Positions 32,569-50,764 of a stretch of 64,000 nucleotides of DNA are shown one piece after another. The translations under genes and the position numbers were made by a program. Positions within the stretch are counted from its first letter, which is position 1; each line of letters opens with the position of its first letter. Where the stretch lies: positions 186,001 to 250,000 of the forward strand of contig NZ_MRTH01000005.1 of assembly GCF_001956045.1 (NCBI RefSeq), written 5' to 3'. Below the pieces are notes generated by a model. That model did no database searches. It was not told where the DNA came from and was given only the letters and a program-made list of their open reading frames with translations. This stretch comes from Paenibacillus sp. FSL H7-0331. GTDB lineage: Bacteria > Bacillota > Bacilli > Paenibacillales > NBRC-103111.

Positions 32569-34338
32569 CTAAGGGGCTAACTCCAACACGGTTACCCTGT
32601 ATTCGGTCACGGGAGCTGGTGTCTTCTTCACTTCCTCACTGCCTGTGTAAATGCCAGTAATCGTCGTGGGCCCCTTCTTGAAGCGAACATTGCCGGTCAA
32701 CAGCACATAGCCGTTATTAAGCTGAATCATTGCATGGTTATCATCAACCGAGGTGATCGTGCCCTGAAAACGGATTTTTTCGTTCTTGTGGCTTATCATC
32801 TCCGTCAATGGAATATCCAGTGGAGCTCCACCCAGCTTCGTATCGGCCATCGTTTTGACAAAGGCATAGCGGCCATTACGATACTCGTAAACAGCCTTCT
32901 GTCCGGCACCATCACCTGTCGGGTTATCCATAATAATTGCTCCCGTGGGATCGTAATCTATTTTATCAGCTTCAACATCGAGAACTTTAAAAAGCTCAGG
33001 TGTATTGACCTCATAGGCAAGATAACGAACCTTGCGGGTTTTGGAGGCGGCTTCGATCAGCAAAGAAGAGATCTCCTTTTTTTTGCCAATCTGGTCTGAC
33101 CACTGAATCGATTTTACTGTGATGCCTTGATCGATAGCGGTTCGTGACATTTCGATCTTCTGATCGGCAAGCAGGCGGGCCAGCACAAGGGTTTTATTAT
33201 CGAGCACACCTACAGCGGTCAGCTTGGCTCCAGCCTGCCCCTTGTTACTGATTACATTGGTAAAGGTAAGCTCAGTGCCTGCCGCCTTGCGCAGCAATTG
33301 CTGCGGATCGGCTTCGAGCCAGCGCTGATCGAGCTCACTCACTTCCTTATTCGTGTCCTTGTATTCGTTCAACACCTTATATAAAGCTACGGCATCTGCG
33401 AACTTTTGGGTGGTAGCGAGCTGTTCAGCGCGCTCGAATTGCTTGCGGATCGTCGTTTGAATGTAGGTATTTATTTTAGATGAAGGACCTCCCAGCTCAC
33501 TGGACGTCTGGAATAGCAGGGCGGCTGCAATAAAGCCTTTTAAATCATTTTTTTCCAGCTTGGACAACGTCGCTTGCGCATAGCTCTCGAGCTTCGGCTG
33601 CAGCCAGGCGGCCTCAACGTGGTTAGTGTCATAGAATTTGCGGATACCCGCAACCTCCTTTAACACCTCTCCGATTGATTTGGTTTTGCTGCTGGTATCC
33701 AATCGGGCTTGATCGTAGCGCTCTAGCAGCTTATTCAGCTCCAGCTTTTTAGTATTTTCATCCTTATAGTAAGCGGCAGGCAGCTGCAGCAAATAAGCGA
33801 TATTGTTGTCTCCATTAAAAGTCTTCTTGCTGATATCGCTCTCCAAACTTTTGACCAGCAGCTGCTTGGCGTATGCGAACGCATTGTTAAAACGTTCCTC
33901 CATTTGCTCGGAGGCCGACATTTCGGCAAAACGTTTTTGCGAGGCTTCGTCCAGCACCGCGATCTCTGAGGCCTTAGTCTGATACGTGTTGTAGGTTTTC
34001 AGCAGCAGGGTGATATCGTTCACGTTTTCGGCCGCCTTCAGGTCCGTGGAAAGGGAAGTGAACCAGCTCTTAAGTGCAGTAGCGGGATTCAAGGAAGCCA
34101 GCGCCGCGGCGGTTTCCTTCTCCTTATAGTCAATGATGCGAATTTGTTGGGCTTTGGAGTAGGCTCGCTGAGCCTCAAGCTCGTTTCCTGCAGCTTGCAG
34201 TTCCACACCTTTGGCGTACAGATCTGTCTTTTGCCAGCTGATATAGCCTTTGTATCCGGTCAGGCACAACACTGCCGCCAGTACAATAGCAGCTGCATTG
34301 CGAGTTCGTTTCGAACGTTTGTACATGAAAGATGCCAA
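32569..34338 (-). CDS. Single-pass membrane protein with large outer helical domain (589 aa)
   Basis: I do not recognise a named family. A basic N-terminus (residues 1-13) and one hydrophobic helix (about 14-32, AAAIVLAAVLCLTGYKGY) anchor the protein with the rest outside. Residues 33-400 are helical with tetratricopeptide-like spacing (AKGVELQAAGNELEAQRAYSKAQQIR; EQLATTQKFADAVALYKVLNEYKDTNKEV); the last 190 residues are beta-rich and end in TGIYTGSEEVKKT. TTG 34338 has AGGAGG nine bases upstream. It lies downstream of the zinc-ribbon membrane gene with repeat copy B between them. Context makes it an outer component of the tubulin/GTPase locus. Confidence 0.7.
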   Translation of the reverse strand: MASFMYKRSKRTRNAAAIVLAAVLCLTGYKGYISWQKTDLYAKGVELQAAGNELEAQRAYSKAQQIRIIDYKEKETAAALASLNPATALKSWFTSLSTDLKAAENVNDITLLLKTYNTYQTKASEIAVLDEASQKRFAEMSASEQMEERFNNAFAYAKQLLVKSLESDISKKTFNGDNNIAYLLQLPAAYYKDENTKKLELNKLLERYDQARLDTSSKTKSIGEVLKEVAGIRKFYDTNHVEAAWLQPKLESYAQATLSKLEKNDLKGFIAAALLFQTSSELGGPSSKINTYIQTTIRKQFERAEQLATTQKFADAVALYKVLNEYKDTNKEVSELDQRWLEADPQQLLRKAAGTELTFTNVISNKGQAGAKLTAVGVLDNKTLVLARLLADQKIEMSRTAIDQGITVKSIQWSDQIGKKKEISSLLIEAASKTRKVRYLAYEVNTPELFKVLDVEADKIDYDPTGAIIMDNPTGDGAGQKAVYEYRNGRYAFVKTMADTKLGGAPLDIPLTEMISHKNEKIRFQGTITSVDDNHAMIQLNNGYVLLTGNVRFKKGPTTITGIYTGSEEVKKTPAPVTEYRVTVLELAP

Positions 34339-34436: not shown

Positions 34437-35375
34437 TTAAATGATTCCCTGGAGCTCAGGATCGGACTCGTACTTTTGCTTCAGAAGAGTTGTTAGCTTT
34501 GAGTACAGCTGTGGAAAATCATCCGGGCCTTCAGCGACCAAATGACACAGTCGAATCAAACGTTCACGCGGCAGCTCCTCGATAAAATCGGCGATTTGAT
34601 CCTGGTACTGGAGCACATAAGCCTTTACCCGCAGCGCGGCTGTAAATACGAGCGCGAGCGCAATATGTCCACCCGGCAGGGCTTCGATTTCTGTACGGTA
34701 GCGAATGGTATAATCAATAGCATCCCGTTTGACCAGCTCAGGGTTCACCTTGCTCACCTCAAACAAATACAGCACAAAATCAATATCGAAGGCTTCGGGC
34801 AGCAGCGTGCTGAGCTCGAGGTCCATATCCTTACGCAGATTAAAATGATTCAGACAGATGATCTTGAGAATTTTCACTTGATTGCCGGTAAATAAATAAC
34901 CAATTTCCCGCAGCTTTTCATAAGCTTGTTTATAATCCTCGGCCTTCAAATCGGCAGCCGCATCCTCGGTATCCAGCAGCAATCCTTCGCGAATCGTACG
35001 ATTTTCACTCTGCAGCAGCTCGTTGAGCAAGCTTTTCTCCAGATAGGGCGTATATTTTTTGCGCAGCAGGAGATACAGCACAATAAGCGCTATTCCTGCC
35101 AGCAGCGAAATCAGCATTTCCGTCAAATTTTTGCTCAGCACTATAGCTGCAAGGGCTCCTGTACCGACAATCAATACGTCTCTTTGGGCATGGCGTTTCA
35201 TAATCGTCTGCAGTAAAGGCAATAACGGAGTGAATTTTCCATCTGCCCCGCAATACAGACATGTATCTTCCCACAATGAAGAGTAGCTGCCGCAACCTTT
35301 GCATTGCTTCAAACGTTCATAGGTATGGCTGGTTCGACGACTGGGTCGAAAATGGGCAGCGATTTTATTTTTCAT
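34437..35375 (-). CDS. Membrane protein with N-terminal zinc ribbon (312 aa)
   Basis: Four cysteines in two pairs, QCKGCGS and TCLYCGA (Cys25, Cys28, Cys39, Cys42), form a rubredoxin-type zinc ribbon in the cytoplasm. Two membrane helices follow (about residues 66-110: VLIVGTGALAAIVL, LISLLAGIALIVLYLLL), then about 200 residues of helical, HEAT-like sequence that would be cytoplasmic too. No enzyme motif is seen. The start is uncertain: GTG 35384, ATG 35381 and ATG 35375 are all in frame and overlap the end of the small upstream gene; AGGGTG fits ATG 35375 best. Neighbouring zinc-ribbon GTPase and TM genes suggest a joint complex. Confidence 0.72.
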   Translation of the reverse strand: MKNKIAAHFRPSRRTSHTYERLKQCKGCGSYSSLWEDTCLYCGADGKFTPLLPLLQTIMKRHAQRDVLIVGTGALAAIVLSKNLTEMLISLLAGIALIVLYLLLRKKYTPYLEKSLLNELLQSENRTIREGLLLDTEDAAADLKAEDYKQAYEKLREIGYLFTGNQVKILKIICLNHFNLRKDMDLELSTLLPEAFDIDFVLYLFEVSKVNPELVKRDAIDYTIRYRTEIEALPGGHIALALVFTAALRVKAYVLQYQDQIADFIEELPRERLIRLCHLVAEGPDDFPQLYSKLTTLLKQKYESDPELQGII

Positions 35376-35517
35376 GAGCATCACCCTGGTTTAATTGACT
35401 TTTGAAATCGGCATCAATGCGGTCCAGGGAAAGCTCATTTTGTTTGCTTTTATGAAACTGGGTCCACCTGAACAGAATGAAAATAACGGCTAGCGCCAGC
35501 AAGGTATAGGTTAGCAT
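35365..35517 (-). CDS. Small membrane-anchored protein (50 aa)
   Basis: A 50-codon gene not obvious from ORF length. It begins MLTYTLLALAVIFILFRW, a single membrane helix, followed by a basic and then acidic cytoplasmic tail (FHKSKQNELSLDRIDADFKS). GGAGGTG lies seven bases before ATG 35517, a near-perfect ribosome-binding site. Its stop lies inside the start of the zinc-ribbon gene, so the two are translationally coupled. It is the first gene of the leftward half of the tubulin/GTPase locus, divergent from the VWA gene at 35733. Function unknown. Confidence 0.75.
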   Translation of the reverse strand: MLTYTLLALAVIFILFRWTQFHKSKQNELSLDRIDADFKSQLNQGDAHEK

Positions 35518-35732
35518 CCAATGCACCTCCATTGTATCGACCACAAGGCTCAGGTTGAAACGCTCGGCGTATTTGGACTTGTCCGACTGCGCTCATTTCC
35601 TCTTCGATATGTGGGCTGTAAGTAACCTTAAGAATATCATAAGAAATGGGACAGTGGAATTTTATGCTCTAAAAGATTAAGATGGTGAGTAGATAGTCTA
35701 TTTGTATATGAATGTTTTGGAGGATTAACAAC

Positions 35733-37514
35733 GTGAAGAATAATAGAACACTTATAAGGATCGCTGCCGCCATGCTTGCGTTGGTGCTGGCTTTCCCGCT
35801 CTATACGCTGGCAGCGGGCAGCGACACGAAGATCGATGCTGTGCTTTCGGTGGATGTCAGTACCTCCATGAACGAAAGCGATGTGAACAAGGTAAGCAAT
35901 GAAGCTATGAAAATGTTCATTGATATGGCATCTGTCCAAGGCGACAAGATCGGTGTGGTGGCGTATACGGATCAAATTTTACGGGAAAAGGCGCTGCTGA
36001 AGATAGGCAGTGCAGCCGACAAACAGAGCTTGAAAACGTTCATCGATCAGCTGACGAGAGGGCCTTATACCGATATAGCTGTTGGAGTCAATGAAGCCGT
36101 AAAAATCCTTGAATCCGGCGGCAGCGAGCCCGGACATGTTCCGTTGATCGTTCTGATGACCGATGGCAATAATTCACTGAATGCCGGTAAGAGCCAGCAG
36201 CAGTCCGATCAGGTGCTGAATGAGGCCGTGAAGAAAGCCAAGGACAAAGGCATTCCGATCTACACGATTGGCTTGAATGCAGACGGCACCTTGAACAAGG
36301 ATGTTTTGGAGCGGATTTCGACAGAAACTGGCGGCAAGCTGTTCATTACCTCGACGGCCGACAAGCTGCCGCAAATATTAAGTGAAATTTATGCGAGCCA
36401 CCTCAAGCTCAAGGTTGTACCGCTCACAGGCATTACGGCGAACGGTCAATTCCAGGATGTGACAATTAACATTCCCAATGCGAGCGTGCTGGAAGCGAAC
36501 ATTTCAATGATGTCGTCCAAGCCGGTAGAAGCGAAGCTGATCAACCCTGCGGGCCAACAGCAAACGATCCCTTCCGACAAAGTTATTTATACTGCTTCCT
36601 CCGCTTATACGCTAATTAAGCTGATAAGTCCGGTGCAAGGCGATTGGAAGCTGCAAATTAAAGGCGTACCGAAAGAAAAAATCGACATTAATTTAATTTA
36701 TAACTACGATGTGCAGGTGTCGATGGAGGTTTTGTCGTCTAATTCTTATAAGCCTGGAGACACAGTGCCGATTAAAGCATTTTTGGAGTCGAATGGTGCC
36801 AAGATAACGGATGCCGATTTATACAAAAATCTCAAGGCCGCTCTGGTCATAACCGATCTTGATACGAAAAAAACGTCGGAAACACCACTAACGGCTTCGG
36901 TACAAGGTATAGAAGGAACCTTCAAGATCCCTGAGGCGCATGACTATGAAATCAAAGTCAAGGCAGAGGATGCGAGCTTCGTTCGCGAATCACAGCCAGT
37001 GACCGTTTCCGCCAAAAAAGCCGGAGCTAGCACACCTGTACCACCCCCAACCACTGGCAGCAATGAGGCGACTGCGGGAAGTACTTCGGCTCTGGTTGGC
37101 CCTATAGCATGGATTGTGGGGATTTTGCTCGTATTGATCGCAGCCGCATTGTTCGCATTATCCCGATGGAAAAAGGCGAATAAAGGCTTTTACGGACAAA
37201 TGGTCGTTGAAATCAAGGATGAGGACACCGGAGAGCGAACAACCCCGCAGTACCGCAAGCTGAATGCCTTCAAAGGCAAAGTGGAGCTTCACCAATTGCT
37301 GCAGCTGGCGCCGGAATTTGCCGAAACGAAGCAGATCGTGTTTAAGCCGGGCCCTGGCGACACGGTCGTTCTGTACAACCAATCGGGTTGTGTTATCGAA
37401 AAGGGCGGTCGTTTATTCGACGCAGTAAACGGCAAGGAGCTTAAAAATAACGATCGTATCAAAATTTTATTGCAAAATATTAATAAATCGATCACGGTTG
37501 AATTTATCAAATAA
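35733..37514 (+). CDS. Extracellular VWA-domain membrane protein with cytoplasmic FHA-like tail (593 aa)
   Basis: Signal peptide or anchor (about residues 7-28, IRIAAAMLALVLAFPLYTLAAG). VWA domain at about 33-220 with an intact MIDAS metal site: Asp41-x-Ser43-x-Ser45 (SVDVSTSMNE), the Thr of RGPYTDIAVG and VLMTDGNNS. A beta-rich outer region follows to about 450, then a Thr/Pro/Ser linker, a membrane helix (about 453-477) and a 115-residue cytoplasmic tail. The tail (VVLYNQSGCVIEKGGRLFDAVNGKELKNNDRIKIL) has the spacing of an FHA-like beta-sandwich. GTG 35733 follows TTGGAGG. Domains of this kind bind protein ligands through a metal ion. It starts the rightward operon. Confidence 0.85.
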   Translation: MKNNRTLIRIAAAMLALVLAFPLYTLAAGSDTKIDAVLSVDVSTSMNESDVNKVSNEAMKMFIDMASVQGDKIGVVAYTDQILREKALLKIGSAADKQSLKTFIDQLTRGPYTDIAVGVNEAVKILESGGSEPGHVPLIVLMTDGNNSLNAGKSQQQSDQVLNEAVKKAKDKGIPIYTIGLNADGTLNKDVLERISTETGGKLFITSTADKLPQILSEIYASHLKLKVVPLTGITANGQFQDVTINIPNASVLEANISMMSSKPVEAKLINPAGQQQTIPSDKVIYTASSAYTLIKLISPVQGDWKLQIKGVPKEKIDINLIYNYDVQVSMEVLSSNSYKPGDTVPIKAFLESNGAKITDADLYKNLKAALVITDLDTKKTSETPLTASVQGIEGTFKIPEAHDYEIKVKAEDASFVRESQPVTVSAKKAGASTPVPPPTTGSNEATAGSTSALVGPIAWIVGILLVLIAAALFALSRWKKANKGFYGQMVVEIKDEDTGERTTPQYRKLNAFKGKVELHQLLQLAPEFAETKQIVFKPGPGDTVVLYNQSGCVIEKGGRLFDAVNGKELKNNDRIKILLQNINKSITVEFIK

Positions 37515-37652: not shown

Positions 37653-40600
37653 ATGAAAGCAGTTGTCAGAGAGCATATTCAACAGCTGGATGTGTCATTG
37701 GGCGGAGGCATTATCAGCGACAAAATTCGTGTCGATACGATAGACAATCCGATGCTCGTTATTGGGCTTGGCGGTACAGGAATTGACGCGCTGCTGCGTC
37801 TGAAATACCAGATCAACCGCAGATTCAAGCTTCCTGAGGATCCATTCACGAAGAAGAAAAAGGAGAAGCCGGCCAACGTCGAATTTCTCGCACTGGAAAC
37901 GAATGAGCATGACCGCAACAAAAAATATAAAGGCATTGGTCTGGATCCGCTAACCGAGTTCGTGCTGCTCTCCAATGCCGAAATCGGCAGCGTCCTGCAA
38001 AACCGCAGCATTCTTGAGCCTTACATTCGCGAATGGCTGTCACCCGAGCTGACAATTACAGATGGCATTAATGGTGCATCAGGTGTCAGACAGGCCGGAC
38101 GTCTGCTGCTGTTTACGAAGATCGTACAGGTTGTGCAAACGATCGAACGGAAAATCAAATCGTTATCTGTCGGCACGAACAAAAAGCTGATGGTATTCGT
38201 GCTGACGGGCCTCGCCGGAGGTACAGGTAGCGGCTGCTTCCTCGATATCGCCTATATCGTACGGGGTATCATGGAGCGCGATTACGGTTCCGCAGGGGTA
38301 GATAAGGTCAATATACTTGGTTACTTGTTCACGCCTGACGTTAATTTGGCGAACAAAAGCCTGACTGAGCATTCACGCGAATATATTAAAAAGAACGGCT
38401 ATGCGGCGATGAAGGAACTCGACTACTGGATGAATGTCGATGAGCGTACTGAGCGGTTCAAGCAGCAATATGCGAGCATCCTGAACGTTAATTCGCCGAT
38501 GCCTCCATTTAATTTGGCACATCTCATATCTGCTACGAATCTCGAAGGCAAGCTGCTGGAAAATGCCTATGACTACTGTATGAATGTAACGGCGGAGAAT
38601 ATCACCAACTTTATGGCCAGCGAGGACAAAAGCTCCGGCGAGGAATTCGCGATCCATGATTATATCAGCAACATCCGCACGAATATTAACCAGATGCCGA
38701 AAACGTATGCCGCCAACTATCAGTACAATATTTTGGGTGCGTCCTCTGCGGTGCTGCCAATTGAGGAAATGACGACTTACTTGGCCTACAAGGTGTTCCA
38801 GCGCATGGAAAAGATGTTCGACGCCGGACCCACACAGGAAGAAGTGGAAAAGCTGGCGCACAAGCTGGGTATCGATCCTGACTCTGTGCATCGCGAGTTC
38901 GACAAGCGTGTTCCCGAGCCGATTCCCGGTTATCAGAACAGCGAGCGGTTAAGCTATAACAACGTCATCAAGCAGCAGGTCGTCAATATCGATACAGAGC
39001 TGGAGCAAAGCTTCCTGTCGCGTGCCCGTGAGGAATATATCAAGAGCCGCAAGCAGCTGCCCGGTCAGATCAAGGAAAATTTCACCGAGCAGATGACGAA
39101 AATTTTCGGCAATCCCGAGCAGGGACCGTTTTACGTGTCGAGGATTATTTTGCAGGACAAGGGCTTTTGTCTGCTTAAGCTGATCTCCTCCTATATAGAA
39201 GCACTGCGTGAAAGCATCTACCGTATCCCGCGTGATGTAGAATCTGCAGAAGAGCAGTCGGTTCAGAAAATGACCGAGGCCCGCAGCGCGTTCATCTCCA
39301 AGGACAAGAAGAAAGATGCTTTTATCGAGTCCAAAATCCAGGAATATCTGCTGCACGCAGACCGCGAGCGGATGGAGCAGATGGTCGAGTTTTATGAGGA
39401 TTTATATAAATTGATCAATGATGAAAATTCGCGGATTTATCAGGTGTTTTCCGAGCTGTTGAATGAGCTGAATAAAATATTCGAAAAGAACGGCCGGATT
39501 CTGACCAACGGTGAAGAAGCAGTCGATCACAAGGGGAACCGTACCTATTATTGGAACGTTGTTAGCATCCCGGATATTGCCTCGCTTGTTGGTGAAGTGA
39601 CGAATGAGAAGAACGTCAATGAATTGATCCGTGACTTTACGAGCGAGCTGCTGGCCAAATCAAACCAGTGGATCAAAGAGCAGGAAGTGGACGTAATCAG
39701 CTCGATATCCGAGTTTTTGACTGATCACTTTGGCGATTTGATCACCAAATCGATGGAAGATTATTTGATCATCAAGTATGGACATGAGGATTCGATTGAG
39801 AAGCTTGTGGAGCAGCGAATTGCGAGCCGCCTTTATGAAGAAGCGAAGCCGGTGTTTCATTTGAGCAATAGCTCAGGGCATTTTAATTTCCCTTCGTGGG
39901 GTTTTGTTTCAGTACCTTTCAAAGCACCAAGTATTTTCAAAGGTATTCGTAATTTTCAGGATAACGCGATTGCCAATTCACGCTTTACGATCAAGGAAAG
40001 TCAGGTGAAAAACCGCATATTCTGGTTGAACACCCAAAATGGGATTCCGTTGTTCCTTTATACGCCTATGAAGGTATACGAGGAAAGTTATGAGCGTACC
40101 ATTCTTGAGCCGGAGGGCGTCGGCCGCCATTTGGTGCAGACGGATAAGGTCAATTGGACTTACCTGCCATCACCGATTCCGGAAAAATCATGGGGTGACA
40201 CATATCAGAATGGACGAGTGAAAAGCTACAATGCCGAGGTGCGGTTTTCCTTCGAGCGCGCGCTGACACTCCATGTTATCCGTCAAAAAGGAGTCGACAG
40301 CGGGACGATTAACCGTTACGAATGTATGTTTACGCAGCCTTTTGACCTGAACCGTTATTTGGAGGCTTACTCCTTACAGCTTGCAGCATCCAGACCGAAT
40401 CTGGGAGAGCTGCAGCGCTGCGTAGGCGATTTGAAGCAGCTGCTTGAAAACGGTCTTGAAGTTGAACGGACGAAGGATATTTTTGGCAGTGTAAATTCGG
40501 ATATGGCCAAGGAAAACCTGATCCGTTCTCCTGAGCTGCTGAAGCTGGTTAAGGATGAGCTGAGCAAGTACGACCGGATTTCCGGGAAAATTGCCGAGTT

Positions 40601-41581: not shown

Positions 41582-43936
41582 GTGAATTTACGCGAAAAGC
41601 TGCTCTCATTCGCGAATGCATATTCCGCGGAAATGGATCACACAGGTATCGATGATGATGAGCTGCGCAGCATCAACCATCCAATTGTTTTTGTATTTCT
41701 GGGTGATCAGTCCGTAGAGGCCTTGGAGGCAGTTCATGCCTTAAACAGCACGAAGTGGAATAACTCCGCAGGTGTTGTTTATCTGCATATAGGCACGAAG
41801 GCTCACGCGGCGCGGGATAACGTATATGGCTGGAGCTTACCGACCTCGTCAGAGGACAAGCGCAGCCTCCGTCCTTCGATTCATGAGCAATTTTATGCTG
41901 ATGAAACGAAGCTGCTCGAGTTGAACGTCACTTTACGCAGGATGAATAGCCGAATCTCTGAGTTTGGACGGATGTACACCCATCTGCAGCGCTTGAACAT
42001 TGCCGTAGTGACCTGTCTGGACGATCCGTCCAATGTACTGCTTCCGGAAATTTCCGTTTTGATGCAAACCATCTTCGGAGAGCAATTCCGTTCCGTCGCC
42101 ATTGATCTGTATGGCTTGCTTGAAGAAAAAGCGGTAGGGGAGCAGTTTGCGCTGCAGGCCTCGTTGGGAGTCAGTTTTTTGCGAGAGCTGGATGTGTATC
42201 AGAGCAGGGATTACCAGTTTGACGGGATGCTGCAGGTGACGGGTGAAGGTGTTCGTCTGCCTGTTGTTCACTCGCCATCGCCACTGTTCGATGTGGTCTA
42301 TTTGTTGAGCGATAAGGATGAACGGGGAATATTCGCTGATCATGGGATGCAGGGCAGCTATGAAACGATTTGCAACCTCAACCTGTTGAAAAACCGCAAA
42401 ACCATGAACGAGCTGGACCCGAAGCATGGTGCGTACAATAATCAGCATTTTAAGCAAAATGCGACCCCGCCGGATGGAGACGGACGAGTTTATGCGTCTG
42501 CTGGTTTTTCCAAGGTGAAGCGGCCGAATCCGGCAATAGCGCTGACCGTTCTTTATCATATGTACAGACACCTGCTGGAGCGGATGAAGGAGAATGCGGA
42601 ACTGGGCACAGGATTTGTTCAGGAGCTGCTTGATCTGGAGCCGCAGCGGTGGGATCACGATATTCGCTCGTTATTGCCGGATCGTGAGCGAGCCGTAGCC
42701 GGAATGTTTGGTCTTTTGCACGATAATGTTTCCTTGTCTGATCTGCAGTCGATGACGCTTCGTCAGGCAGAGTCGGCTTTGTATGGAGGGAACGCACAAT
42801 TCTTTTTTGATACCAACATTGTCCGAGTGCTGGATAAAGCTTTTGTAGACCGGGATTTTGGCGGAGGGCTGAAGAAAAAACTGGATAACCGGATCATTGA
42901 TCACCCGTTGTACGGATTTTACGCTGCCTATCTGTTTTCTGCGGATGGTATGAGCAGCAATTTGATCCATGAGCTTCAGGAATACGTGAAGGAGGCTGCC
43001 AAGCTGCTGGAGCAAGGACAAGAAGAGCTGGAGCAGCTGTATGCGGATCGTATGGAGGATCAGCCTTTTGCCAAAGTGTCGTTCTGGGGCCGGATTACGA
43101 ACAAAACCTCAGTCAAAAGCCTCAGTCGTCCTTTGCTCGAATTGATCTATGGGATGAAGCTGGATTTGCTGCTGCAGGAGATGAAGCTGAAGCTATTGAA
43201 GCTATACCTGCATGAGCTTGAGAACCTACATGAGCGGGCGAAACCTTTTGTAGCGCGGCTGCATCAAATGGAGAAAACGTTACAGGATGCAAGCCGTGGT
43301 AGTATTTCAATGACCAGTGACTATCTAAGCCGCAACATTAATGAGTATTACAGACATGGGGTAGAGCAGATTGTAACGGAGTTGGAGAACCGCCGTGGTG
43401 CGCAGTTTTATTTTGAGGAGCGGCAAATGGGCAACGTTTCGCAGCTGCTGGTTCAGGGGGAGGACCATCTGCTGGAGCGGTTGATTGGGATGGCGCGCCG
43501 GGAAGTATTTGTGCAGCCTTTGTTTCAAAAAACTTTCGAAGATGAGCTCTTGGAGCGGGCTAACGTAGCTGCCAGCTATGATAACCGAGAGGTGCTCTCC
43601 AAAGAAGACCTGTTCCGTGATTTATACAGCACACTCGAAAATGAGGCTGCAATACGCGTTGATGTTTATCATTCAACACATAAACACCGTCATATCGAAA
43701 AATATTTTTTTGGTGATTATGAAAGTGAATTTATTCGCTATGCATTTGCTATCGATCAGGGCAGCCGTGCTTATAAGCTGGGTTGTGTTCAGGAAATGAA
43801 GCACAGCGGAATTGAAAAGCTCAATATTATGGGCGGCTTCCGGATCGAGGACTTGATGTATTACCGAAATGGCAAACGTTATTACGATACGTATTTGCAG
43901 AATGGTTTTGTGTTCCATAGTATGGACAATGTTTGA
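41582..43936 (+). CDS. Probable second tubulin-like subunit without the GTP-binding loop (784 aa)
   Basis: No named family is recognised, but the order of elements parallels its upstream neighbour. HPIVFVFLGDQSVEALEAVHAL (residues 33-54) aligns with NPMLVIGLGGTGIDALLRLKYQ (32-53) of the 1129-aa protein. NIAVVTCLDDPSNVLLPEISVLM (139-161) occupies the place of the GGTGSG signature but lacks all its glycines. PLFDVVYLLSDKDERGIFAD and ASAGFSKVKRPNPAIALTVLYHMYRHLLERM match PPFNLAHLISATNLEGKLLEN and GASSAVLPIEEMTTYLAYKVFQRMEKM. I infer a nucleotide-binding-dead paralogue that pairs with the active one. GTG 41582 follows AAAGGAGG. No membrane segment. Confidence 0.75.
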   Translation: MNLREKLLSFANAYSAEMDHTGIDDDELRSINHPIVFVFLGDQSVEALEAVHALNSTKWNNSAGVVYLHIGTKAHAARDNVYGWSLPTSSEDKRSLRPSIHEQFYADETKLLELNVTLRRMNSRISEFGRMYTHLQRLNIAVVTCLDDPSNVLLPEISVLMQTIFGEQFRSVAIDLYGLLEEKAVGEQFALQASLGVSFLRELDVYQSRDYQFDGMLQVTGEGVRLPVVHSPSPLFDVVYLLSDKDERGIFADHGMQGSYETICNLNLLKNRKTMNELDPKHGAYNNQHFKQNATPPDGDGRVYASAGFSKVKRPNPAIALTVLYHMYRHLLERMKENAELGTGFVQELLDLEPQRWDHDIRSLLPDRERAVAGMFGLLHDNVSLSDLQSMTLRQAESALYGGNAQFFFDTNIVRVLDKAFVDRDFGGGLKKKLDNRIIDHPLYGFYAAYLFSADGMSSNLIHELQEYVKEAAKLLEQGQEELEQLYADRMEDQPFAKVSFWGRITNKTSVKSLSRPLLELIYGMKLDLLLQEMKLKLLKLYLHELENLHERAKPFVARLHQMEKTLQDASRGSISMTSDYLSRNINEYYRHGVEQIVTELENRRGAQFYFEERQMGNVSQLLVQGEDHLLERLIGMARREVFVQPLFQKTFEDELLERANVAASYDNREVLSKEDLFRDLYSTLENEAAIRVDVYHSTHKHRHIEKYFFGDYESEFIRYAFAIDQGSRAYKLGCVQEMKHSGIEKLNIMGGFRIEDLMYYRNGKRYYDTYLQNGFVFHSMDNV

Positions 43937-44021: not shown

Positions 44022-44382
44022 AGCACCACACCAAAAGCAAAGCTTGTCCCGAAGAGACGAAAGCGCCCCGAGAGCACATAAGTCAAGCTCGCCAGCAGCA
44101 CCACACCAAAAGTTGAGCTTGTCCCGAAGGGACGAAAGCGCCCCGAGAACACATAGTCACACACACAAGCACCACACCATAAACCAAGCGTGTCCCAAAG
44201 GGACGAAAGCGCCCCGAGAACACATAGTCACGCACACGAGCACCACACCAAAAAGTCGAGCTTGTCCCGAAGGGGCCAAAGCGCCCCGAGAACACATAGT
44301 CATGCACATCAGCACACACCAAAGCCAAGCGTGTCCCGAAGGGATGGAAAGCGCCCCGAGAACACATAAGTTTCGCACACAG
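44022..44382. repeat. Tandem repeat array, five units of 71-75 bp
   Basis: Units start at 44022, 44097, 44168, 44239 and 44311, each opening with AGCACCACACC or a close variant and containing TGTCCCGAAGGGACG (a 6-bp hairpin) and AAAGCGCCCCGAGAACACAT. Units differ at a few positions, mostly in the CA-rich stretch between hairpins. All three frames stay open in places, giving repetitive peptides on both strands that are not genes. The array fills most of the 515-base gap between the 784-aa gene and the second VWA gene. Confidence 0.85.
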
Positions 44383-44385
44383 TAA

Positions 44386-44440
44386 GGGAGTCCAGAGGGC
44401 AGCGCCCTTTGGGGCCCTCCCTTGGGAGGGTTTGGGAGGG
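44386..44440 (+). repeat. Dispersed repeat module, second copy
   Basis: Shares CCAGAGGGCAGCGCCCTTTG and the CCCTCCC...GGGAGGGTTTGGGAGGG tail with 41472-41528. Its final GGGAGGG (44434-44440) is the only Shine-Dalgarno-like sequence in front of the next gene (ATG 44453). Confidence 0.8.
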
Positions 44441-44452: not shown

Positions 44453-45730
44453 ATGCGTAAATGGAACGGACTATTAACTTTATTCAGCTTAATCAGCGGG
44501 ATTATCGGATTTGTAATCGGAGAATACATCCTTGACCGCTGGGATGGAACGATTCACGAAACGTTACTGATGGGCCTGTACTTCGGCCAATTTGCATTGG
44601 TGGTAGGTTTGGGCTGCCTGCTGGCCGAGATCATTTCGCCACAGCTGAACGGGAAAAACTGGAGGCTGCGTTATGCCAATGAGGGCTGGAAATTTCTCGT
44701 TCCGGCGACACTAGTACTGTTGTTTGCTGCGGGAGCCCTGTTCCAATGGGGTTATGGTTTACAATTAGGTAACAACGACAAACCGCAGGATTATGTCCTG
44801 CTTATTGATATGTCGGAAAGTATGAAGACCAGTGATCCTCAGAAGCAAAGTATTCAAGCTGCGCAAGCCTTGATCAATAAGATGGACGATGGGAAGCAGG
44901 TCGCGGTGTTCACATTTAATGAACAAACCCAATTGATTGCGCCGTTGACCAAGCTTAAGGATCCGGCAGCGAGAGCACAGCTTACAGCGAAGCTGAGCGC
45001 GATCGGAGCGCCTATAGGCCAAACGGATATCGGCAGAGCGCTGGATACAGCGATGGAGCATCTGACCAAGGAACGAATAGCCAACCGTAAGGCGGCCGTA
45101 ATCCTGATCTCCGACGGATACAGCGATATGAATGAGGTCAAGGTTCTTACTCCCTATCAGCAGCAGCGAACCCAGATCCATACCGTGGGGATTGATTCCA
45201 CACAGGTAGAGGGTAATCAACTGCTGCAGCGTATTGCAGCGCAAACAAACGGCACCTTTCATGATGTGAAGCGGGTGGAAGGCGTCGCCAACGCATTCGA
45301 TCAAATATACCAAAATGGGCAACGTTGGCATTTGGCGAACGAGCGTGCAGGTACAGCGGCAGATGGGTATCACGGCTGGCTGCGGATCCTATTGATTCTC
45401 CTGATAGGCGCACTTCTCGGCCTGGCACTCGGTATCGTATTTGACAATCGTTTCCTGGCGAAATGTTTTGCCATTGGAGGGGCTTTGGGAGGCCTGATCG
45501 CAGGCGTTATACTGGAAACCGGATTACAGGGATCCGTTGAACCTTTTATCGTCCGTGCTTTCGCTGATGTGGCACTTGCTTTGGTGCTCTCATTATCTAC
45601 GGTACTGATAGCGGTAGGTGGCCCAGGTGGCTCTGGAACGGGAAGAAATGGATTTCGCAAAACAGCTTTGGAGCAGCCGATTCGTGGCGAACGCCAAGGC
45701 GGTGAGACGATACGCAAGCAATTCCGTTAA
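44453..45730 (+). CDS. Multi-pass membrane protein with VWA domain (425 aa)
   Basis: Three N-terminal membrane helices (about 7-24, 38-60, 81-100) precede a VWA domain at about 112-300 with the MIDAS motif Asp119-x-Ser121-x-Ser123 (LLIDMSESM) and VILISDGYSD. Three more helices close the protein (LLILLIGALLGLALGIVF, FAIGGALGGLIAGVILE, FADVALALVLSLSTVLIAV), followed by a basic tail. With three helices before it, the VWA domain lies outside if the N-terminus is inside. ATG 44453 is preceded 12 bases upstream by GGGAGGG from the repeat module; the longer frame from 44432 starts within that repeat. Confidence 0.85.
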   Translation: MRKWNGLLTLFSLISGIIGFVIGEYILDRWDGTIHETLLMGLYFGQFALVVGLGCLLAEIISPQLNGKNWRLRYANEGWKFLVPATLVLLFAAGALFQWGYGLQLGNNDKPQDYVLLIDMSESMKTSDPQKQSIQAAQALINKMDDGKQVAVFTFNEQTQLIAPLTKLKDPAARAQLTAKLSAIGAPIGQTDIGRALDTAMEHLTKERIANRKAAVILISDGYSDMNEVKVLTPYQQQRTQIHTVGIDSTQVEGNQLLQRIAAQTNGTFHDVKRVEGVANAFDQIYQNGQRWHLANERAGTAADGYHGWLRILLILLIGALLGLALGIVFDNRFLAKCFAIGGALGGLIAGVILETGLQGSVEPFIVRAFADVALALVLSLSTVLIAVGGPGGSGTGRNGFRKTALEQPIRGERQGGETIRKQFR

Positions 45731-45812: not shown

Positions 45813-46448
45813 TTGCAGTGGGAAGAGCCTGAAATGCAATACCGAATTGTAAAGGCAGCCAGTCAGGCTCTGGACGGGGAAAGTGTTGTCACCTGGCAGT
45901 GGCCGAAGCATGTGGAGGCCGTATATGTATACAGCTTCCCGGATGGTACAGAGCAGGAGCCAGAGGGACTGGAATCGAAGCGACTGAAGCTGTTCACCCG
46001 GGAGGAATATAAAACAAGGTCCGGCTATCGGGAGCGCATCGAGCATATCGGTGTGCAGGGTTATCGGATATTTCCTTGCCTGATTCGAGGCGGTCAGCCA
46101 GTACCATTAAAGCAGATCGATCGTGAAAATTATACACGTGTCAGTGGGGGAAAGGCCAAGCTGAGTTACTCTATTAAATATGGAAATAAATGGTTTAGTA
46201 AATATAAATCGGTGCAGATTCAGCTATTTTGTGAAATGGCGGTTCCGCAGAACGCGCTGTGTTATGTGAAGAAGGAAGGGGCGTCCCCTGTGAACAAGGA
46301 GGATGGGATTGCTTACCCGTTCCTTAATGATTTTGCCGCAGGCAATCATCGGCTTCCCGAGATTGAGATTGGGAAAAATGAGTTTATCCGACTATTTTTT
46401 ACCGATGGTAAAGCTTTTGGGGAGCTTTATGAGTTGATTGCCGAGTAG
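45813..46448 (+). CDS. Beta-rich hypothetical protein of the GTPase locus (211 aa)
   Basis: I do not recognise the family. Alternating hydrophobic strands (VVTWQWPKHVEAVYVYSF, VQGYRIFPCLIRGG, AKLSYSIKYGN, VQIQLFCEMAVPQNALCYVKKEG) suggest a beta-sandwich similar to fibronectin or other Ig-like adaptor folds. There is no signal peptide or membrane segment, so it should be cytoplasmic. TTG 45813 is the frame's first start with GGGGGG at a long distance; ATG 45834, preceded by GGGAAGAG, is equally likely and would give 204 aa. It sits between the membrane VWA gene and the GTPase gene and may link them. Confidence 0.7.
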   Translation: MQWEEPEMQYRIVKAASQALDGESVVTWQWPKHVEAVYVYSFPDGTEQEPEGLESKRLKLFTREEYKTRSGYRERIEHIGVQGYRIFPCLIRGGQPVPLKQIDRENYTRVSGGKAKLSYSIKYGNKWFSKYKSVQIQLFCEMAVPQNALCYVKKEGASPVNKEDGIAYPFLNDFAAGNHRLPEIEIGKNEFIRLFFTDGKAFGELYELIAE

Positions 46449-46610: not shown

Positions 46611-47876
46611 ATGTTGGATTTTTTCAAAAAAATGTTTGATAAAAAGCCGCCTGTCAAGGAACGGCCTCCATATTACAGTATTGTGTGCCCGCATTGCTTC
46701 AGCAAGTTTGAGCCGGACGAAGTCGTATTCCGCGCAAGTCATGTCAAGGAGCATGATGATGATTTTATGCTGCAGGAGGATCGCAAGCTTGCTGATTGGC
46801 GGCGCAAATTCAATCTATCGCAGGTGGATATGGAAGCGATCATTGATCCTCTCACGATACCCGACGAGAATAAAACCTACATCCAGAACGTGCTGGTAGC
46901 CGTGACCGACCGTTACGGTGAAGAAACCAGAAGACGTCTGTGCCCGGACTGCCATAACGAGCTGCCGATTTCGGCTGGCAAGGTTCCGAGTAATATCATC
47001 TCAATCGTTGGTGCCTCACAGGTGGGCAAGTCGGTCTATATGACGTCTTTGATCCATACGCTGCAAAATACGACAGCTTCCAACTTCAACGCAGCCTGCA
47101 TGCCGCTGAGCGCAGAAATCAGCCGCAAGTTCAGGCAAAATTACCACGAGCCGATATTCGAGCGCGGCAGCATGCTGCAATCGACGAATCCCAATGAGCA
47201 GCAGGAGCCGTTCATTTTTCAATTTGTATTCAAGGATGAGCGGGAAGCGCCGCTGACGCTTGTGTTTTTCGATGTGGCTGGAGAGGGCATGGTGGAGCGT
47301 GACTACCTGGACATCTACGCGGCGCATGTCAAGAATTCCTCGGGAATTTTGTTTCTGGTCGATCCGCTGCAGATCCGGAGTATTCGCGATAAAGCGCGTA
47401 TCCATATCGGGGAAGAGGAAGGCGAGTTTGCCAACCGCTATGACGAGCCGCGCGAGGTCGTGATCAGCCTGTTTGAAAATTTTATCGCTCACCAGCATAA
47501 TAGCAAAACCGATATTCCGACGGCGATTGTCCTGACCAAAAGCGATATGCTGACCCATTTGATGGAAGAGGACAGTGAATACATCAGGCCGAACAGCAAT
47601 GTCTTCCGTAATGTAGTGCACAAGGGATTTTTGAACAAGACAGAATTTGAAAATATTAACGGGGAAATCAGTCGTTTTATCGAAAAGGTAGATAGGCCGT
47701 TTAAGGATGCGATTGATGTGTACTTCAAAAACACGGCTTTTTTCGCGGTGTCGGCATTGGGCGCAAATCCGGTTAAAAGCCAAATCACCGGGGTGATTAA
47801 TCCGATTCGGGTTGATGAGCCTTTTATATGGCTTTTGTACCAGCTTGATTATGTGGCTAGGAGAGATGCAACGTGA
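46611..47876 (+). CDS. Zinc-ribbon P-loop GTPase (double-GTPase-like, 421 aa)
   Basis: Cysteine pairs VCPHCF (Cys26, Cys29) and LCPDCH (Cys111, Cys114) frame a treble-clef or ribbon insert. The GTPase core follows: Walker A GASQVGKS (134-141), switch II FFDVAGEG (Asp221-x-x-Gly224) and the guanine-specificity element VLTKSD (309-312), a TKxD variant of NKxD. The order and spacing fit a TRAFAC-class GTPase, and the neighbourhood matches the 'DO-GTPase' group described by comparative genomics (from memory). AAGGAGGG precedes ATG 46611. The stop overlaps the next gene by up to four bases, so GTPase and partner are made together. No membrane helix. Confidence 0.85.
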   Translation: MLDFFKKMFDKKPPVKERPPYYSIVCPHCFSKFEPDEVVFRASHVKEHDDDFMLQEDRKLADWRRKFNLSQVDMEAIIDPLTIPDENKTYIQNVLVAVTDRYGEETRRRLCPDCHNELPISAGKVPSNIISIVGASQVGKSVYMTSLIHTLQNTTASNFNAACMPLSAEISRKFRQNYHEPIFERGSMLQSTNPNEQQEPFIFQFVFKDEREAPLTLVFFDVAGEGMVERDYLDIYAAHVKNSSGILFLVDPLQIRSIRDKARIHIGEEEGEFANRYDEPREVVISLFENFIAHQHNSKTDIPTAIVLTKSDMLTHLMEEDSEYIRPNSNVFRNVVHKGFLNKTEFENINGEISRFIEKVDRPFKDAIDVYFKNTAFFAVSALGANPVKSQITGVINPIRVDEPFIWLLYQLDYVARRDAT

Positions 47877-50764
47877 TGGATTCGCGTAAACCGATACAGC
47901 AGCAATATTTTACACGGGATCGCGAAGGGGTTTTCCGAACGAATGAGGGCTTCGATACGGTAGCCAAATCGGATGGACTGGATTCAGCATTTATCAAAAC
48001 CACCTTGAACCCCTTCTGCGTCTATAAAGCACCCAAGGAGCTGATGGGAAGGAACGAGGAGAACGTTGCTCTGTATCCGGTATCTCTTGTCGTCTTTCAC
48101 GCCGATAATGGGGATATGGTTTTAAGCCGCAGCTGTTATGTAGGGGCTGATTTTACAGGGCAGCGCAGCGCGTCGTTCACGCATCAGTTCGTGGTGCCGA
48201 AGGAACGGAAGGAAGCTTTCCTACGCGAGCCGGAGCGAATTTTGCAAATTGACAGCTTTCAGAGCGCTTATGATATCCGAGAGGGCAAGGTGCTTCCGGA
48301 GCTTGATGATATCGGGTACAACAAAGCTGTCCGCAGCCGCAGCATTGATCGAACGGAGTTGCTGCTGTCCCGGCTCGGCATTGATCAAATTCGTTACCAG
48401 CAGCTCGTTTACGCTGTAATGGCATCTGTAGCCAACAAGAAAAAGAACTATATCGTGCTGGATACGGATGTTACCGATAGCGCCGAGCTCGCCAAAGATT
48501 TGCTGGATTTGATCTACCGAAGCATTCCTTATTCAACACGCCGTCATCTGGGCTTTATGACCTTCAGCAGCGAGCCAGAGGGCAAGCAGGGCTTACATAT
48601 AGTTTTTGTGGAAAAGGGCGGTATTCGCCAGCCGGACCGAAATGTAGAGCGAGAGCACTTATTTGATTTTTCCAATCAGCGATTCATTAACACTGAGCTT
48701 CCGGCGCAGGAGCATTTCCTTCTGGATACGATCTGGAAGCAGCGGCATACATTAGATCAGCTTGATCCTTTATTTGAATTCATTGAAGAAGCGTTGCAGG
48801 GAACACATAATCAAGCGGCAGTAAAGGTGCAGACATATTATGACCTCCACACCTTGTATGAAATCGAACAGGGCAATGAAGCGCTGTATGAGGCTAATCG
48901 TGATACTGCGCTGCAAGGAATTATTTCCTATGTGAACGCAGAGACCGTGGGCAGCAAGGTAAGGCTGAACCAGTTATTCGTCTCGCTGCTGCGCAGAGAC
49001 CTGATGAACGGCGATTTTTTGCCATCATCGGATTATGTTAAATATCTGCTGCAATATTTCGCATTCGCCGATGAGGGCGTCAAATCCCTGCTGAATTCCT
49101 GCTTTATCATCTTGATCAGCCGGGCTGCCAATCGTTCTGAAGAAGGCATGAGCGAAGCCGCGCAAATCTTTGATCAACTGCTTGGACGGGATTCATTGTT
49201 TGATTCGGTGATGAGTGGATTGTACACCCAGCAGGCCGGAACGGCGGAGCGTTATGTTGCTTACCGTATGGCGAAGGCAGTAACGGTCAATGCACTTATG
49301 GAGGAGATCCGATCCTGGATACAGCATGGTGAAAGCATCGTGCAGCAGCGTTTTTTTGCCAATGAGGTACTGAAAAAGGTGAAAAAGCTGCTGCAAACGG
49401 ACTCCGTTCATAAGCGGCTGGAAGCAGCCAATGTCTTGTATCGGTATTTTGACGAACTGCCTGAGCGATCGGGCAAGCAGCAGTATGAGGATTTTTGCGG
49501 CCAGCTGAAGCTTGAGATTCGCCTCGATCTGCTGGATACTCTACAGCCGGGCAATCTGGAGTTCGAGGATATCGTACAGCTGGGCTTTATGCTGGAAAAG
49601 GTCGACCAGGAGCTGAACAGTCATCTGGACAAACGTCAGAAGCAGACGGTCCACCTGCTCAGTACGATTTACAAGGTGCTGTTGATGTCCAAAAGAGAGG
49701 ACTCCGAGCTTGTGAAAGCTATCGACAGGCTGGATACGCTGGATCTCGAAAGAATACAGGAATATTTGAAAAAGCTGCTGTTTACACGTGTCGGTCCTGA
49801 GCATTTTAGTAAAATCGCCTATGCCTTCTATCGCCCCAGTCTGGGACATGCCTCAGGCTATGAAGCAGAATTTGATTATTATGGGTTGCTGGAATATATC
49901 TCCTCGACGACCCACGGCTCTCATACGATCTATGATTTCCTGGTTTGGTCTGCGGAAGACACACGATTTTTAAATATGAGACAAGTGATGGATGCGAATT
50001 ACAAGGCTGCGGTCAGCAAATATTTTGATAATCATGATCCCCGGGCGTTCAGGGATAAAGAAGTTAAACAAAAGCTGCTGGCGACTCCGAATGAAAGCTT
50101 TGTCACTTTTTTCAAAGCAGTCAAGCTTCGGCAGTCAGGCAAGCTGGTTCGTTTTGCTGTCAAAAATAGACGTAAGCTTGTCAGGAGCGGGCTTGTTATC
50201 GCCGCACTTGTCATCCTGCTGGTCGTGTTCCGTAACCCCATTTCGATGATGATCGCTTATTTGGGACCAGCGCCTGTGATTGTGGTGGAGGCACTACCTG
50301 CGGAAGCCACTGCCTCTACAGTGACCTTGCAAGCGAGTGCGAATAACGCCGATCCGGAGATCAAGCTGTATGTCAATGAGCAGTTGATCGGAAGCGGTAA
50401 AATCAGTACAACCGTTGATCTGCAGGATGGTGTCAATGTATTTGAATTCAAGGCAGTGAACCGCGGCGGCAAGTCCTCCGAGGTTATCAAGAAGCAGGTT
50501 TCGTATGCGATGCCAGCGCCTATCGTAACCATTGAAGCTACGCCTGACACTACACGCAACAGCTCCATCCAGCTTAAGGTAGGTGCCGCGGATATACATG
50601 ATCCGAGTCCAACCATCTTTATAAACGGACAGGCTGTCGGGCAAACCAGCGTGAGTAAATCTGTTGAGCTGAAGACCGGAGAGAATATAATTGAAATTAA
50701 AGCAGCGAACAAGCAGGGCAAAATGAGTGAACCGATTCTGAAAAAAATTAAATATGAGAAATAA
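47873..50764 (+). CDS. GTPase-associated protein (GAP1-like) with membrane anchor and two outer Ig-like domains (963 aa)
   Basis: The N-terminus QQQYFTRDREGVFRTNEGFDTVAKSDGLD, then TLNPFCVYKAPKEL and SRSCYVGADFTGQRSASFTHQFVV, has the pattern of the N-terminal domain of GTPase-associated protein 1 (identification from memory). Residues 100-760 are mostly helical and cytoplasmic. A basic stretch and a membrane helix follow (about 770-795, LVRSGLVIAALVILLVVF). Outside are two related Ig-like repeats of about 80 residues (LPAEATASTVTLQASANNADPEIKLYVNEQ and TPDTTRNSSIQLKVGAADIHDPSPTIFINGQ). Start GTG 47873 or ATG 47876, overlapping the GTPase stop. The protein could couple the cytoplasmic GTPase to an external ligand. 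Confidence 0.82.
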   Translation: MMDSRKPIQQQYFTRDREGVFRTNEGFDTVAKSDGLDSAFIKTTLNPFCVYKAPKELMGRNEENVALYPVSLVVFHADNGDMVLSRSCYVGADFTGQRSASFTHQFVVPKERKEAFLREPERILQIDSFQSAYDIREGKVLPELDDIGYNKAVRSRSIDRTELLLSRLGIDQIRYQQLVYAVMASVANKKKNYIVLDTDVTDSAELAKDLLDLIYRSIPYSTRRHLGFMTFSSEPEGKQGLHIVFVEKGGIRQPDRNVEREHLFDFSNQRFINTELPAQEHFLLDTIWKQRHTLDQLDPLFEFIEEALQGTHNQAAVKVQTYYDLHTLYEIEQGNEALYEANRDTALQGIISYVNAETVGSKVRLNQLFVSLLRRDLMNGDFLPSSDYVKYLLQYFAFADEGVKSLLNSCFIILISRAANRSEEGMSEAAQIFDQLLGRDSLFDSVMSGLYTQQAGTAERYVAYRMAKAVTVNALMEEIRSWIQHGESIVQQRFFANEVLKKVKKLLQTDSVHKRLEAANVLYRYFDELPERSGKQQYEDFCGQLKLEIRLDLLDTLQPGNLEFEDIVQLGFMLEKVDQELNSHLDKRQKQTVHLLSTIYKVLLMSKREDSELVKAIDRLDTLDLERIQEYLKKLLFTRVGPEHFSKIAYAFYRPSLGHASGYEAEFDYYGLLEYISSTTHGSHTIYDFLVWSAEDTRFLNMRQVMDANYKAAVSKYFDNHDPRAFRDKEVKQKLLATPNESFVTFFKAVKLRQSGKLVRFAVKNRRKLVRSGLVIAALVILLVVFRNPISMMIAYLGPAPVIVVEALPAEATASTVTLQASANNADPEIKLYVNEQLIGSGKISTTVDLQDGVNVFEFKAVNRGGKSSEVIKKQVSYAMPAPIVTIEATPDTTRNSSIQLKVGAADIHDPSPTIFINGQAVGQTSVSKSVELKTGENIIEIKAANKQGKMSEPILKKIKYEK

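What the first reader, a model, noticed from the sequence alone, without database searches (positions are those of the whole stretch)
32569..50764. Envelope-spanning tubulin-like / VWA / zinc-ribbon GTPase gene system
Ten genes in two divergent groups encode what look like parts of one machine. Cytoplasm: an active-looking tubulin-like protein, a second tubulin-like protein, a P-loop GTPase and a beta-rich adaptor. Membrane: a multi-pass VWA protein, a zinc-ribbon membrane protein and a 50-aa anchor. Outside: a VWA domain with intact metal site, a large helical domain and two Ig-like domains. Coupled overlaps (35365/35375, 47873/47876) support joint production. Related sets (tubulin-like, VWA, DO-GTPase, GAP1) have been listed by comparative genomics as possible conflict systems, but I know of no experimental description of this combination. 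An outside-in sensing device that drives filament assembly would fit.
Basis: partly seen in the sequence, partly recalled or inferred. Interest (0 to 1): 0.92.

Follow-up and report, generated by a model that had tools for sequence, protein, structure and literature searches.

The report
Envelope-spanning tubulin, VWA and GTPase system
The region holds a ten-gene set, conserved in many Paenibacillus-type bacteria, that looks like a machine linking the outside of the cell to tubulin-like filaments inside; the kind was predicted by computer before, I found no experiment on it, and its evolution looks more like cell-envelope upkeep than virus defence.

Summary
In detail: ten genes in two divergent groups (32569-50764). 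They form a member of the Firmicutes 'tubulin theme' of GAP1-N2 GTPase-centric systems (Kaur et al. 2020), overlapping the FtsZ-like-1/VWA/GTPase operons of Makarova and Koonin 2010: a known, experimentally undescribed kind.

Function remains untested.

The parts
32569..34338 (-). A: membrane-anchored protein, predicted outside, helical ectodomain, beta-rich C-terminus; accessory
   Evidence: One N-terminal hydrophobic segment; orthologue in 54 of 80 loci, remnants in 2 of the other 26; bacterial SH3 (SH3_3) at the C-terminus of 4 of 25 orthologues scanned, 3 of them above cut-off, all Brevibacillus
34437..35375 (-). B: N-terminal zinc ribbon, hydrophobic stretch of about two helices, C-terminal domain
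   Evidence: CxxC pairs in 80 of 81 aligned sequences; present in 80 of 80 loci
35365..35517 (-). C: 50-aa single-pass membrane anchor, overlapping B
   Evidence: 77 of 80 loci by the strict filter, the other 3 by a relaxed search; overlaps B in 74 of 78; start read off
35627..35645 (+). Direct-repeat promoter box CTTAAGAATATCATAAGAA in the divergent promoter
   Evidence: exact 18-mer found once in G001 and once in G009, both at this locus
35733..37514 (+). D: signal peptide, external VWA with MIDAS, MG2-like domain, one TM, conserved cytosolic domain of about 110 aa
   Evidence: Pfam; MIDAS DxSxS in 81 of 81; VWA 69% and cytosolic domain 64% mean pairwise identity
37653..41042 (+). E (Tub1): Tubulin_2 / FtsZl1 protein with intact T1-like (GLGGTG) and T4-like (GGTGSG) loops
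   Evidence: GGTGSG in 81 of 81, G.GG.G in 81 of 81
41582..43936 (+). F (Tub2): tubulin fold with a helical insertion, GTP-binding loop absent
44453..45730 (+). G: polytopic membrane protein with an apparently external VWA, MIDAS intact
   Evidence: MIDAS in 81 of 81, one of which, L064, is probably D's VWA; six segments in 53 of 81
45813..46448 (+). H: soluble protein, probably beta-rich, candidate for the FNIII component of Kaur et al.
   Evidence: 79 of 80 loci (the 80th, L064, ends earlier); no useful Pfam match in 27 members; fold not tested
46611..47876 (+). I: zinc-ribbon DO-GTPase
   Evidence: DO-GTPase2 E 2.3e-9; P-loop GKS in 80 of 80, TKSD in 79 of 80, CxxC pairs in 80 of 80
47873..50764 (+). 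J: GAP1-N2/GAP1-M protein, TM, two Ig/cadherin-like domains predicted outside; overlaps I
   Evidence: overlap with I in 74 of 76; found in all 79 loci that reach it, 4 of them cut by the end of the stretch

Best explanation
A stably inherited envelope machine. Outside, the MIDAS-bearing VWA domain of D, the VWA of G, the Ig-like tail of J and, where present, the ectodomain of A contact the cell wall or another conserved envelope ligand (inferred). D carries the signal through one TM to its conserved cytosolic domain (topology predicted). Inside, the zinc-ribbon DO-GTPase I and its membrane-anchored partner GAP1 (J), made from overlapping genes, act as the switch (inferred from motifs and gene coupling). 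The switch gates membrane-proximal assembly of Tub1, which keeps the GTP-binding loops, with Tub2, a tubulin fold without the T4 loop, as partner, cap or nucleator (fold predicted, assembly inferred). B and C anchor the complex. Output: local remodelling or stabilising of the envelope, probably under stress.
For: Fixed core and order. GAP1-N2 in 17 and a full-length Tubulin_2 in 17 of 151 class genomes, the same 17, and both together in 47 of 104 family genomes. Tub2 tubulin fold. Motifs kept. Purifying selection, low omega in D's ectodomain. Distances track rpoB, r 0.84-0.94 for eight of ten genes. SH3_3 on A in Brevibacillus. Promoter box resembling published OmpR-family sites, with orthologous sites beside response-regulator genes.
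Against: No experiment. The Tub1 model was poor (pLDDT 60.4), so its filament interfaces are untested. No complex was modelled. A is not seen in 26 of 80 loci (one of these runs off its contig), and the set is absent from about half the family genomes, so it is dispensable. G's VWA domain (45% mean identity) is less conserved than G's membrane parts (55-60%), and J's Ig domains and A diverge fast, which a conserved ligand does not predict. The two-component link rests on three related genomes; sites with up to 2 mismatches are not enriched over the reversed control, and no further sites above control level were seen in the window's own lineage.
Confidence: 0.42

Rival explanations
1. A biological-conflict (anti-phage or abortive) system, as proposed for the whole class by Kaur et al.: a sensing module releases the GTPase switch, and tubulin polymers contain the invader or kill the cell.
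For: Authors' comparative argument and association with multicellular habit; patchy presence, 47 of 104 family genomes; fast-diverging GAP1-C, Ig domains and A; A lost or decayed in a third of loci; copies with cut frames exist (G264, G255).
Against: Predicted hallmarks were not seen in this lineage: no swapped effector inside the core in 80 loci (what lies in A's place was listed, not classified); the candidate sensor H is under purifying selection (omega 0.05-0.19); vertical descent; no GAP1 match in 72,556 plasmid records and no close relative of Tub1 in viral contigs; PADLOC gave one marginal hit.
Confidence: 0.2
2. A specific wall-antibiotic or peptide stress module: an OmpR-type two-component system induces it and the filaments reinforce or repair damaged membrane (a narrower form of the best explanation).
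For: CTTAAGA-N4-CTTAAG box at the D promoter, the only exact copy in three genomes; orthologous relaxed sites beside a regulator/kinase pair with an ABC transporter, a second regulator/kinase pair and a D-Ala-D-Ala carboxypeptidase/regulator pair.
Against: Few genomes; motif chosen from the same data; the reversed exact pattern also occurs once in G195 and once in G001; no control for the expected number of orthologous sites; two further orthologous sites without such genes in view; no enrichment.
Confidence: 0.2
3. A general membrane-remodelling or vesicle machine without a sensing role, as predicted for FtsZl1 operons by Makarova and Koonin.
For: Same core (FtsZl1, VWA, GTPase, membrane proteins).
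Against: External MIDAS domains and a D cytosolic domain kept at 64% mean identity suggest ligand-gated signalling.
Confidence: 0.13
4. A TubZ-like partition filament for DNA.
For: Foldseek ranks CetZ first and TubZ third for Tub2.
Against: Not found on plasmids at useful coverage; on the main contig of three single-contig genomes; membrane partners throughout.
Confidence: 0.02

Closest known systems
[quoted passage not shown] computational)
   Same: DO-GTPase with zinc ribbons, GAP1-N2/GAP1-M, two tubulin genes, two VWA genes (one polytopic), GAP1 with TM and cadherin-like tail
   Different: No swapping effectors in the core, no mobility signal, candidate sensor H not hypervariable; the divergent A-B-C group is not mentioned in the passages that I read; the helical region of Tub2 appears inserted rather than C-terminal
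FtsZ-like 1 (FtsZl1)/VWA/GTPase operons (Makarova and Koonin 2010, PMC2875224; computational)
   Same: Tubulin_2 protein with VWA and GTPase in one neighbourhood; proposed membrane remodelling
   Different: For FtsZl1 proteins they could not confidently place the T6-H7 elements nor find similarity of the C-terminal domain to known tubulins; the model of the divergent member Tub2 matches tubulins to its end; Tub1 itself is untested
BtubA/B, CetZ, TubZ and tubulin
   Same: Fold of Tub2
   Different: Tub2 lacks the T4 GTP-binding loop and carries a helical insertion of roughly 350 residues; membrane partners
Integrins (by analogy only; recalled)
   Same: External MIDAS VWA domain, one TM, internal filament system
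   Different: No homology beyond the VWA domain was tested or is claimed

Membership tests
GAP1-N2 GTPase-centric system, Firmicutes tubulin theme | DO-GTPase with two N-terminal zinc ribbons and conserved Glu at Walker B | tested here: met
   DO-GTPase2 above cut-off; CxxC at 32 and at 117 in 80 of 80, DVAGE in 80 of 80; Pfam zinc-ribbon hits only below cut-off
GAP1-N2 GTPase-centric system, Firmicutes tubulin theme | GAP1 with N2 and M domains encoded just downstream of the GTPase | tested here: met
GAP1-N2 GTPase-centric system, Firmicutes tubulin theme | Two tubulin-domain genes | tested here: met
   Tub1 by Pfam; Tub2 by model and profile
GAP1-N2 GTPase-centric system, Firmicutes tubulin theme | Two VWA genes, one fused to YtkA, one polytopic with external VWA | tested here: inconclusive
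   Two VWA genes and a polytopic one are there; the fused domain hits MG2 below cut-off, YtkA itself was not hit
GAP1-N2 GTPase-centric system, Firmicutes tubulin theme | A rapidly evolving FNIII-repeat component | tested here: inconclusive
   H is the candidate; no FNIII hit in 27 members; it is not among the fast-evolving genes
GAP1-N2 GTPase-centric system, Firmicutes tubulin theme | Tubulin domain with C-terminal coiled coil | tested here: inconclusive
   Helical region present, but in Tub2 the tubulin match ends beyond it (ranges only); Tub1 untested
Biological conflict system in general (Kaur et al.) | Mobile neighbourhoods with variable effector components | tested here: not met
   In this lineage; site shared within clades only
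FtsZl1/VWA/GTPase operon | Tubulin_2 protein with VWA and GTPase genes beside it | tested here: met
Known anti-phage systems in PADLOC-DB 2.0.0 | Convincing match of a component to a model | tested here: not met
   One marginal hit, MTase_II E 0.0096 to J; none for the other nine at E 0.01
TubZ partition systems | Plasmid or phage location | tested here: not met
   No plasmid or phage place covers 80% of Tub1
Filament-forming tubulin | GTP-dependent polymerisation | not testable with these tools
   Tub1 model pLDDT 60.4; no solved relative by sequence

The most novel reading that the evidence does not exclude
A bacterial outside-in cytoskeletal device: a MIDAS-type VWA receptor reads the state of the cell wall, a GTPase/GAP1 switch relays it, and a heteromeric tubulin filament made of one GTP-binding and one degenerate subunit, each with a long helical spoke inserted in the tubulin fold, assembles under the membrane, the whole being induced by an OmpR-type two-component system.
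Probability: 0.18. Interest if true: 0.88.

Novelty: new member of a known kind. Interest (0 to 1): 0.52.

Why it matters
Two published predictions (membrane remodelling, 2010; anti-invader conflict system, 2020) exist for this class, and the searches made here found no experiment on either. The tests favour an envelope role over an arms-race role in this lineage, suggest a corrected domain picture of the second tubulin, show that nine genes form the constant core, and name a promoter box, so the question can be put to the bench in a laboratory strain. If true, bacteria have a transmembrane link from wall to tubulin filaments.

Tried and rejected
Tub1 structure: the AlphaFold2 model from 45 sequences was poor (pLDDT 60.4, pTM 0.34); it was not searched or used. 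The first hhalign comparison of Tub1 and Tub2 with small alignments gave only probability 20; larger alignments gave probability 85, E 6e-6, over 180 columns. Fold of D's cytosolic domain, H and A by sequence: no convincing solved relative and no useful Pfam hit for H and the D domain.

Promoter box as a genome-wide regulon: with up to 2 mismatches the three genomes have fewer sites (14+14, 17+14, 11+13) than the reversed control (28+37, 26+30, 22+15); in G001, G009 and G007 sites (3+2, 2+2, 2+3) are at control level (3+5, 5+3, 4+2). Only the orthologous sites are kept, as a lead without a chance control. Motif statistics used a motif chosen from the same sequences, 20 shuffles by letter swaps, and 43 clusters of the intergenic stretches; stretches under 80 bases were dropped. 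In one search exact sites not at this locus: G009 two places, G192 one, G193 one of two; G001 and G191 had none; the reversed pattern hit once (both strands) in G001 and in G195.

G (r 0.25 against rpoB) is, I think, an artefact: G013's stretch ends before G and D's VWA was probably picked up; C gave no value. A count of the T4 loop with a wrong pattern gave zero for both tubulins and was replaced. A long gene in A's place in two loci (L068, L071) was checked as a divergent A: no profile match, and for L071 no hhalign match (probability 0.2). CmoA, a VWA protein for colony movement in Paenibacillus sp. NAIST15-1 (PMC5072692, passages), is a different protein by its description. The RNase J-type neighbour gave no plasmid match. 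Rfam and tRNA scans of the window gave nothing.

Considered and rejected: frame 43933-44385 as a gene (repeat DNA); gene 50820-51140 as a member (seen in 5 of 18 stretches, each also with the window's right-hand neighbour tauE).

Full report
What is there. The window holds ten genes in two divergent groups at the stated places. Leftwards: A (32569-34338), B (34437-35375) and C (35365-35517). Rightwards: D (from 35733), E/Tub1 (37653-41042), F/Tub2 (41582-43936), G (from 44453), H (45813-46448), I (from 46611) and J (47873-50764). Pfam gives VWA plus a sub-threshold MG2 for D, Tubulin_2 (E 6e-78) for E, VWA for G, DO-GTPase2 for I, and GAP1-N2, GAP1-M and Ig/cadherin-like domains for J. NCBIfam gave only VWA-type matches below cut-off. 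PADLOC gave one marginal hit, MTase_II E 0.0096 on J. Hydropathy: D with signal peptide and one TM (two segments in 77 of 81); G with six segments in 53 of 81; J with one TM in 68 of 76 (two in the window's); A with one segment in 49 of 55; C with one in 75 of 78; B with one or two in 76 of 81; E none in 76 of 81, F none in 78 of 80, H none in 78 of 80, I none in 80 of 80.

Is it one unit? Of 40 relatives, 18 had a Tubulin_2 match, 17 of them long and G025 weak. In the 18 stretches around these, 13 showed all ten genes in the same order and orientation (in G012 matches to F, I and J were partial). G014 and G034 lacked a C match, G017 lacked A and C, G013 ran off its contig after E, and G025 showed none of the ten. 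A scan of one genome for each of 84,980 species found 309 relatives of Tub1, of which the tool kept the best 80 (Paenibacillus, Gorillibacterium, Brevibacillus and one record named Bacillus). In those 80 by a strict length and score filter: B 80, C 77, D 80, E 80, F 79, G 80, H 79, I 79, J 75, A 54; all ten in order in 48 of 80, only A missing in 25 of 80. A relaxed check found C in the three loci where it was missed (in L080 in one frame with B) and the start of J, cut by the end of the stretch, in four of five; the fifth, L064, is a contig that ends after E, and its G match is probably D's VWA. So the nine core genes are there wherever the stretches reach. Of the 26 loci without A, L099 runs off its contig, and L090 and L119 keep a remnant (E 1.5e-15 and 1.9e-6); the other 23 showed nothing better than E 0.03. 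No order variant was seen. Overlaps I/J (74 of 76) and C/B (74 of 78) are conserved.

Co-occurrence. Among 151 genomes of the class, 17 have GAP1-N2 and 20 a Tubulin_2 match. The 17 with the full-length match are the same 17, on the same contig and strand 8.2 to 10.3 kb apart; the other three matches are short or weak. Among 104 family genomes, 48 have GAP1-N2 and 49 a Tubulin_2 match, 47 of them long. All 47 have GAP1-N2; G250 has GAP1-N2 alone; G025 and G256 have only weak Tubulin_2 matches. G264 (both genes in pieces) and G255 (Tub1 frame of 556 aa) are counted in the 47 but look broken, by mutation or by sequencing error. In the nearest genus 12 of 13 genomes carry it.

Other motifs. MIDAS DxSxS is intact in D and G in 81 of 81 each. 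In I, GKS is in 80 of 80, and TKSD in 79 of 80. A ends in a bacterial SH3 domain in four of 25 orthologues scanned, all Brevibacillus, three above the cut-off; for the Paenibacillus A only a weak similarity of the family profile to solved SH3-like domains was seen there (best E 0.23; that these are SH3 domains is recalled).

How it evolves. Pairwise distances of the genes against rpoB, in the 16 or 17 genomes that gave each gene, correlate at 0.84-0.94 for A, B, D, E, F, H, I and J; G gave 0.25, which I take for an artefact of one genome, and C gave no value. Related genomes share flanking genes, distant ones do not, so the site is stable within clades only; I had no control operon. Omega in five close pairs is 0.006-0.231 for all genes but C (about 50 codons, up to 0.80, few sites). 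D's ectodomain has omega 0.04-0.10 (four pairs), and its VWA domain is 69% identical on average over 81 sequences, the highest figure outside Tub1 and the GTPase. Against a uniformly conserved outside: G's VWA is 45%, the Ig domains of J 20-23% and A 30-34%; GAP1-C is 31%. These too show omega well under 1 (highest 0.28, Ig part, one pair). No close relative of Tub1 was found in viral contigs (two peptide patterns), no plasmid record matched GAP1, and the five plasmid matches and one phage match to Tub1 cover at most 34% at under 28% identity.

Promoter. Between C and D many lineages have a direct repeat TTAAGA-N5-TTAAGA: 12 of 43 sequence clusters with at most one mismatch against 1.45 in shuffles, 6 against 0.1 with none; the motif was chosen after looking. 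In G190, G194 and G195 (the genomes of L079, L088, L098) the exact CTTAAGA-N4-CTTAAG occurs once, at this locus (position worked out); in G193 (L115) one of two copies is here. In L079 the box ends 14 bases before a TATAAT (read off), where an activator of the OmpR family could sit (recalled). Orthologous relaxed sites shared by two or three of these genomes form five groups besides this locus: beside an OmpR-type regulator/kinase pair and its ABC transporter, a second regulator/kinase pair, and a D-Ala-D-Ala carboxypeptidase/regulator pair, and two without such genes in view. The box resembles CiaR (TTTAAG-5bp-TTTAAG; PMC9241815 passages) and PmrA sites (CTTAAG, 5 bp, XTTAAT; PMC3973317 passages). 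Against it: no genome-wide enrichment. It is a lead only.

Known or new. The set fits the Firmicutes tubulin theme of Kaur et al. 2020 (abstract, section 27 and passages of other sections seen) and the FtsZl1 operons of Makarova and Koonin 2010 (abstract and section 3). I found no experiment: paper searches (open-licence PubMed Central only) listed these two and others; of the others I looked at passages of four (PMC9871819; PMC11237479; PMC5072692; none describes an experiment on this set), the rest I saw as listings. Of the hallmarks on which the conflict reading rests, swapping effectors, mobility and a hypervariable sensor were tested and not seen in this lineage, though H as the sensor is only a candidate and its FNIII nature is unproved. 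Therefore the identity is firm, the envelope-machine reading is my best estimate, and the defence reading is weakened but not excluded.

Noticed in passing
window 44015-44380: Tandem array of about five 71-bp units with a small GTCCC-GAA-GGGAC hairpin, between F and G; it reads as a spurious 150-aa frame (43933-44385).
   Followed up: partly
window 41481-41507 and 44395-44421: Two exact copies of a 27-bp palindrome-rich element (GAGGGCAGCGCCCTTTGGGGCCCTCCC) bracketing Tub2; it may be a dispersed repeat.
   Followed up: no
window 28770-32496: Sigma-70-family (ECF-like) factor and DUF4179 gene, then an RNase J-type gene, directly left of the set; found in this place only in G001 and G009 of 18 stretches.
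   Followed up: partly
window 50820-51140: 106-aa protein of unknown family just after J, kept in 5 of 18 stretches.
   Followed up: no
G264, G255, G250: Cut frames in two genomes and GAP1-N2 without a Tubulin_2 match in one: losses, partial sets or sequencing errors.
   Followed up: no
L080:6615-7766: The C profile matches inside the same open frame as B, a possible C-B fusion.
   Followed up: no
P0095: A cluster 70% identical to Tub1 carries a Gram-negative pathogen's name, evidently a contaminated or wrong label.
   Followed up: no
L209, L192, L198: A conserved relaxed box also lies near a sulfatase-like gene in three genomes, about 12 kb from the ABC/two-component site.
   Followed up: no
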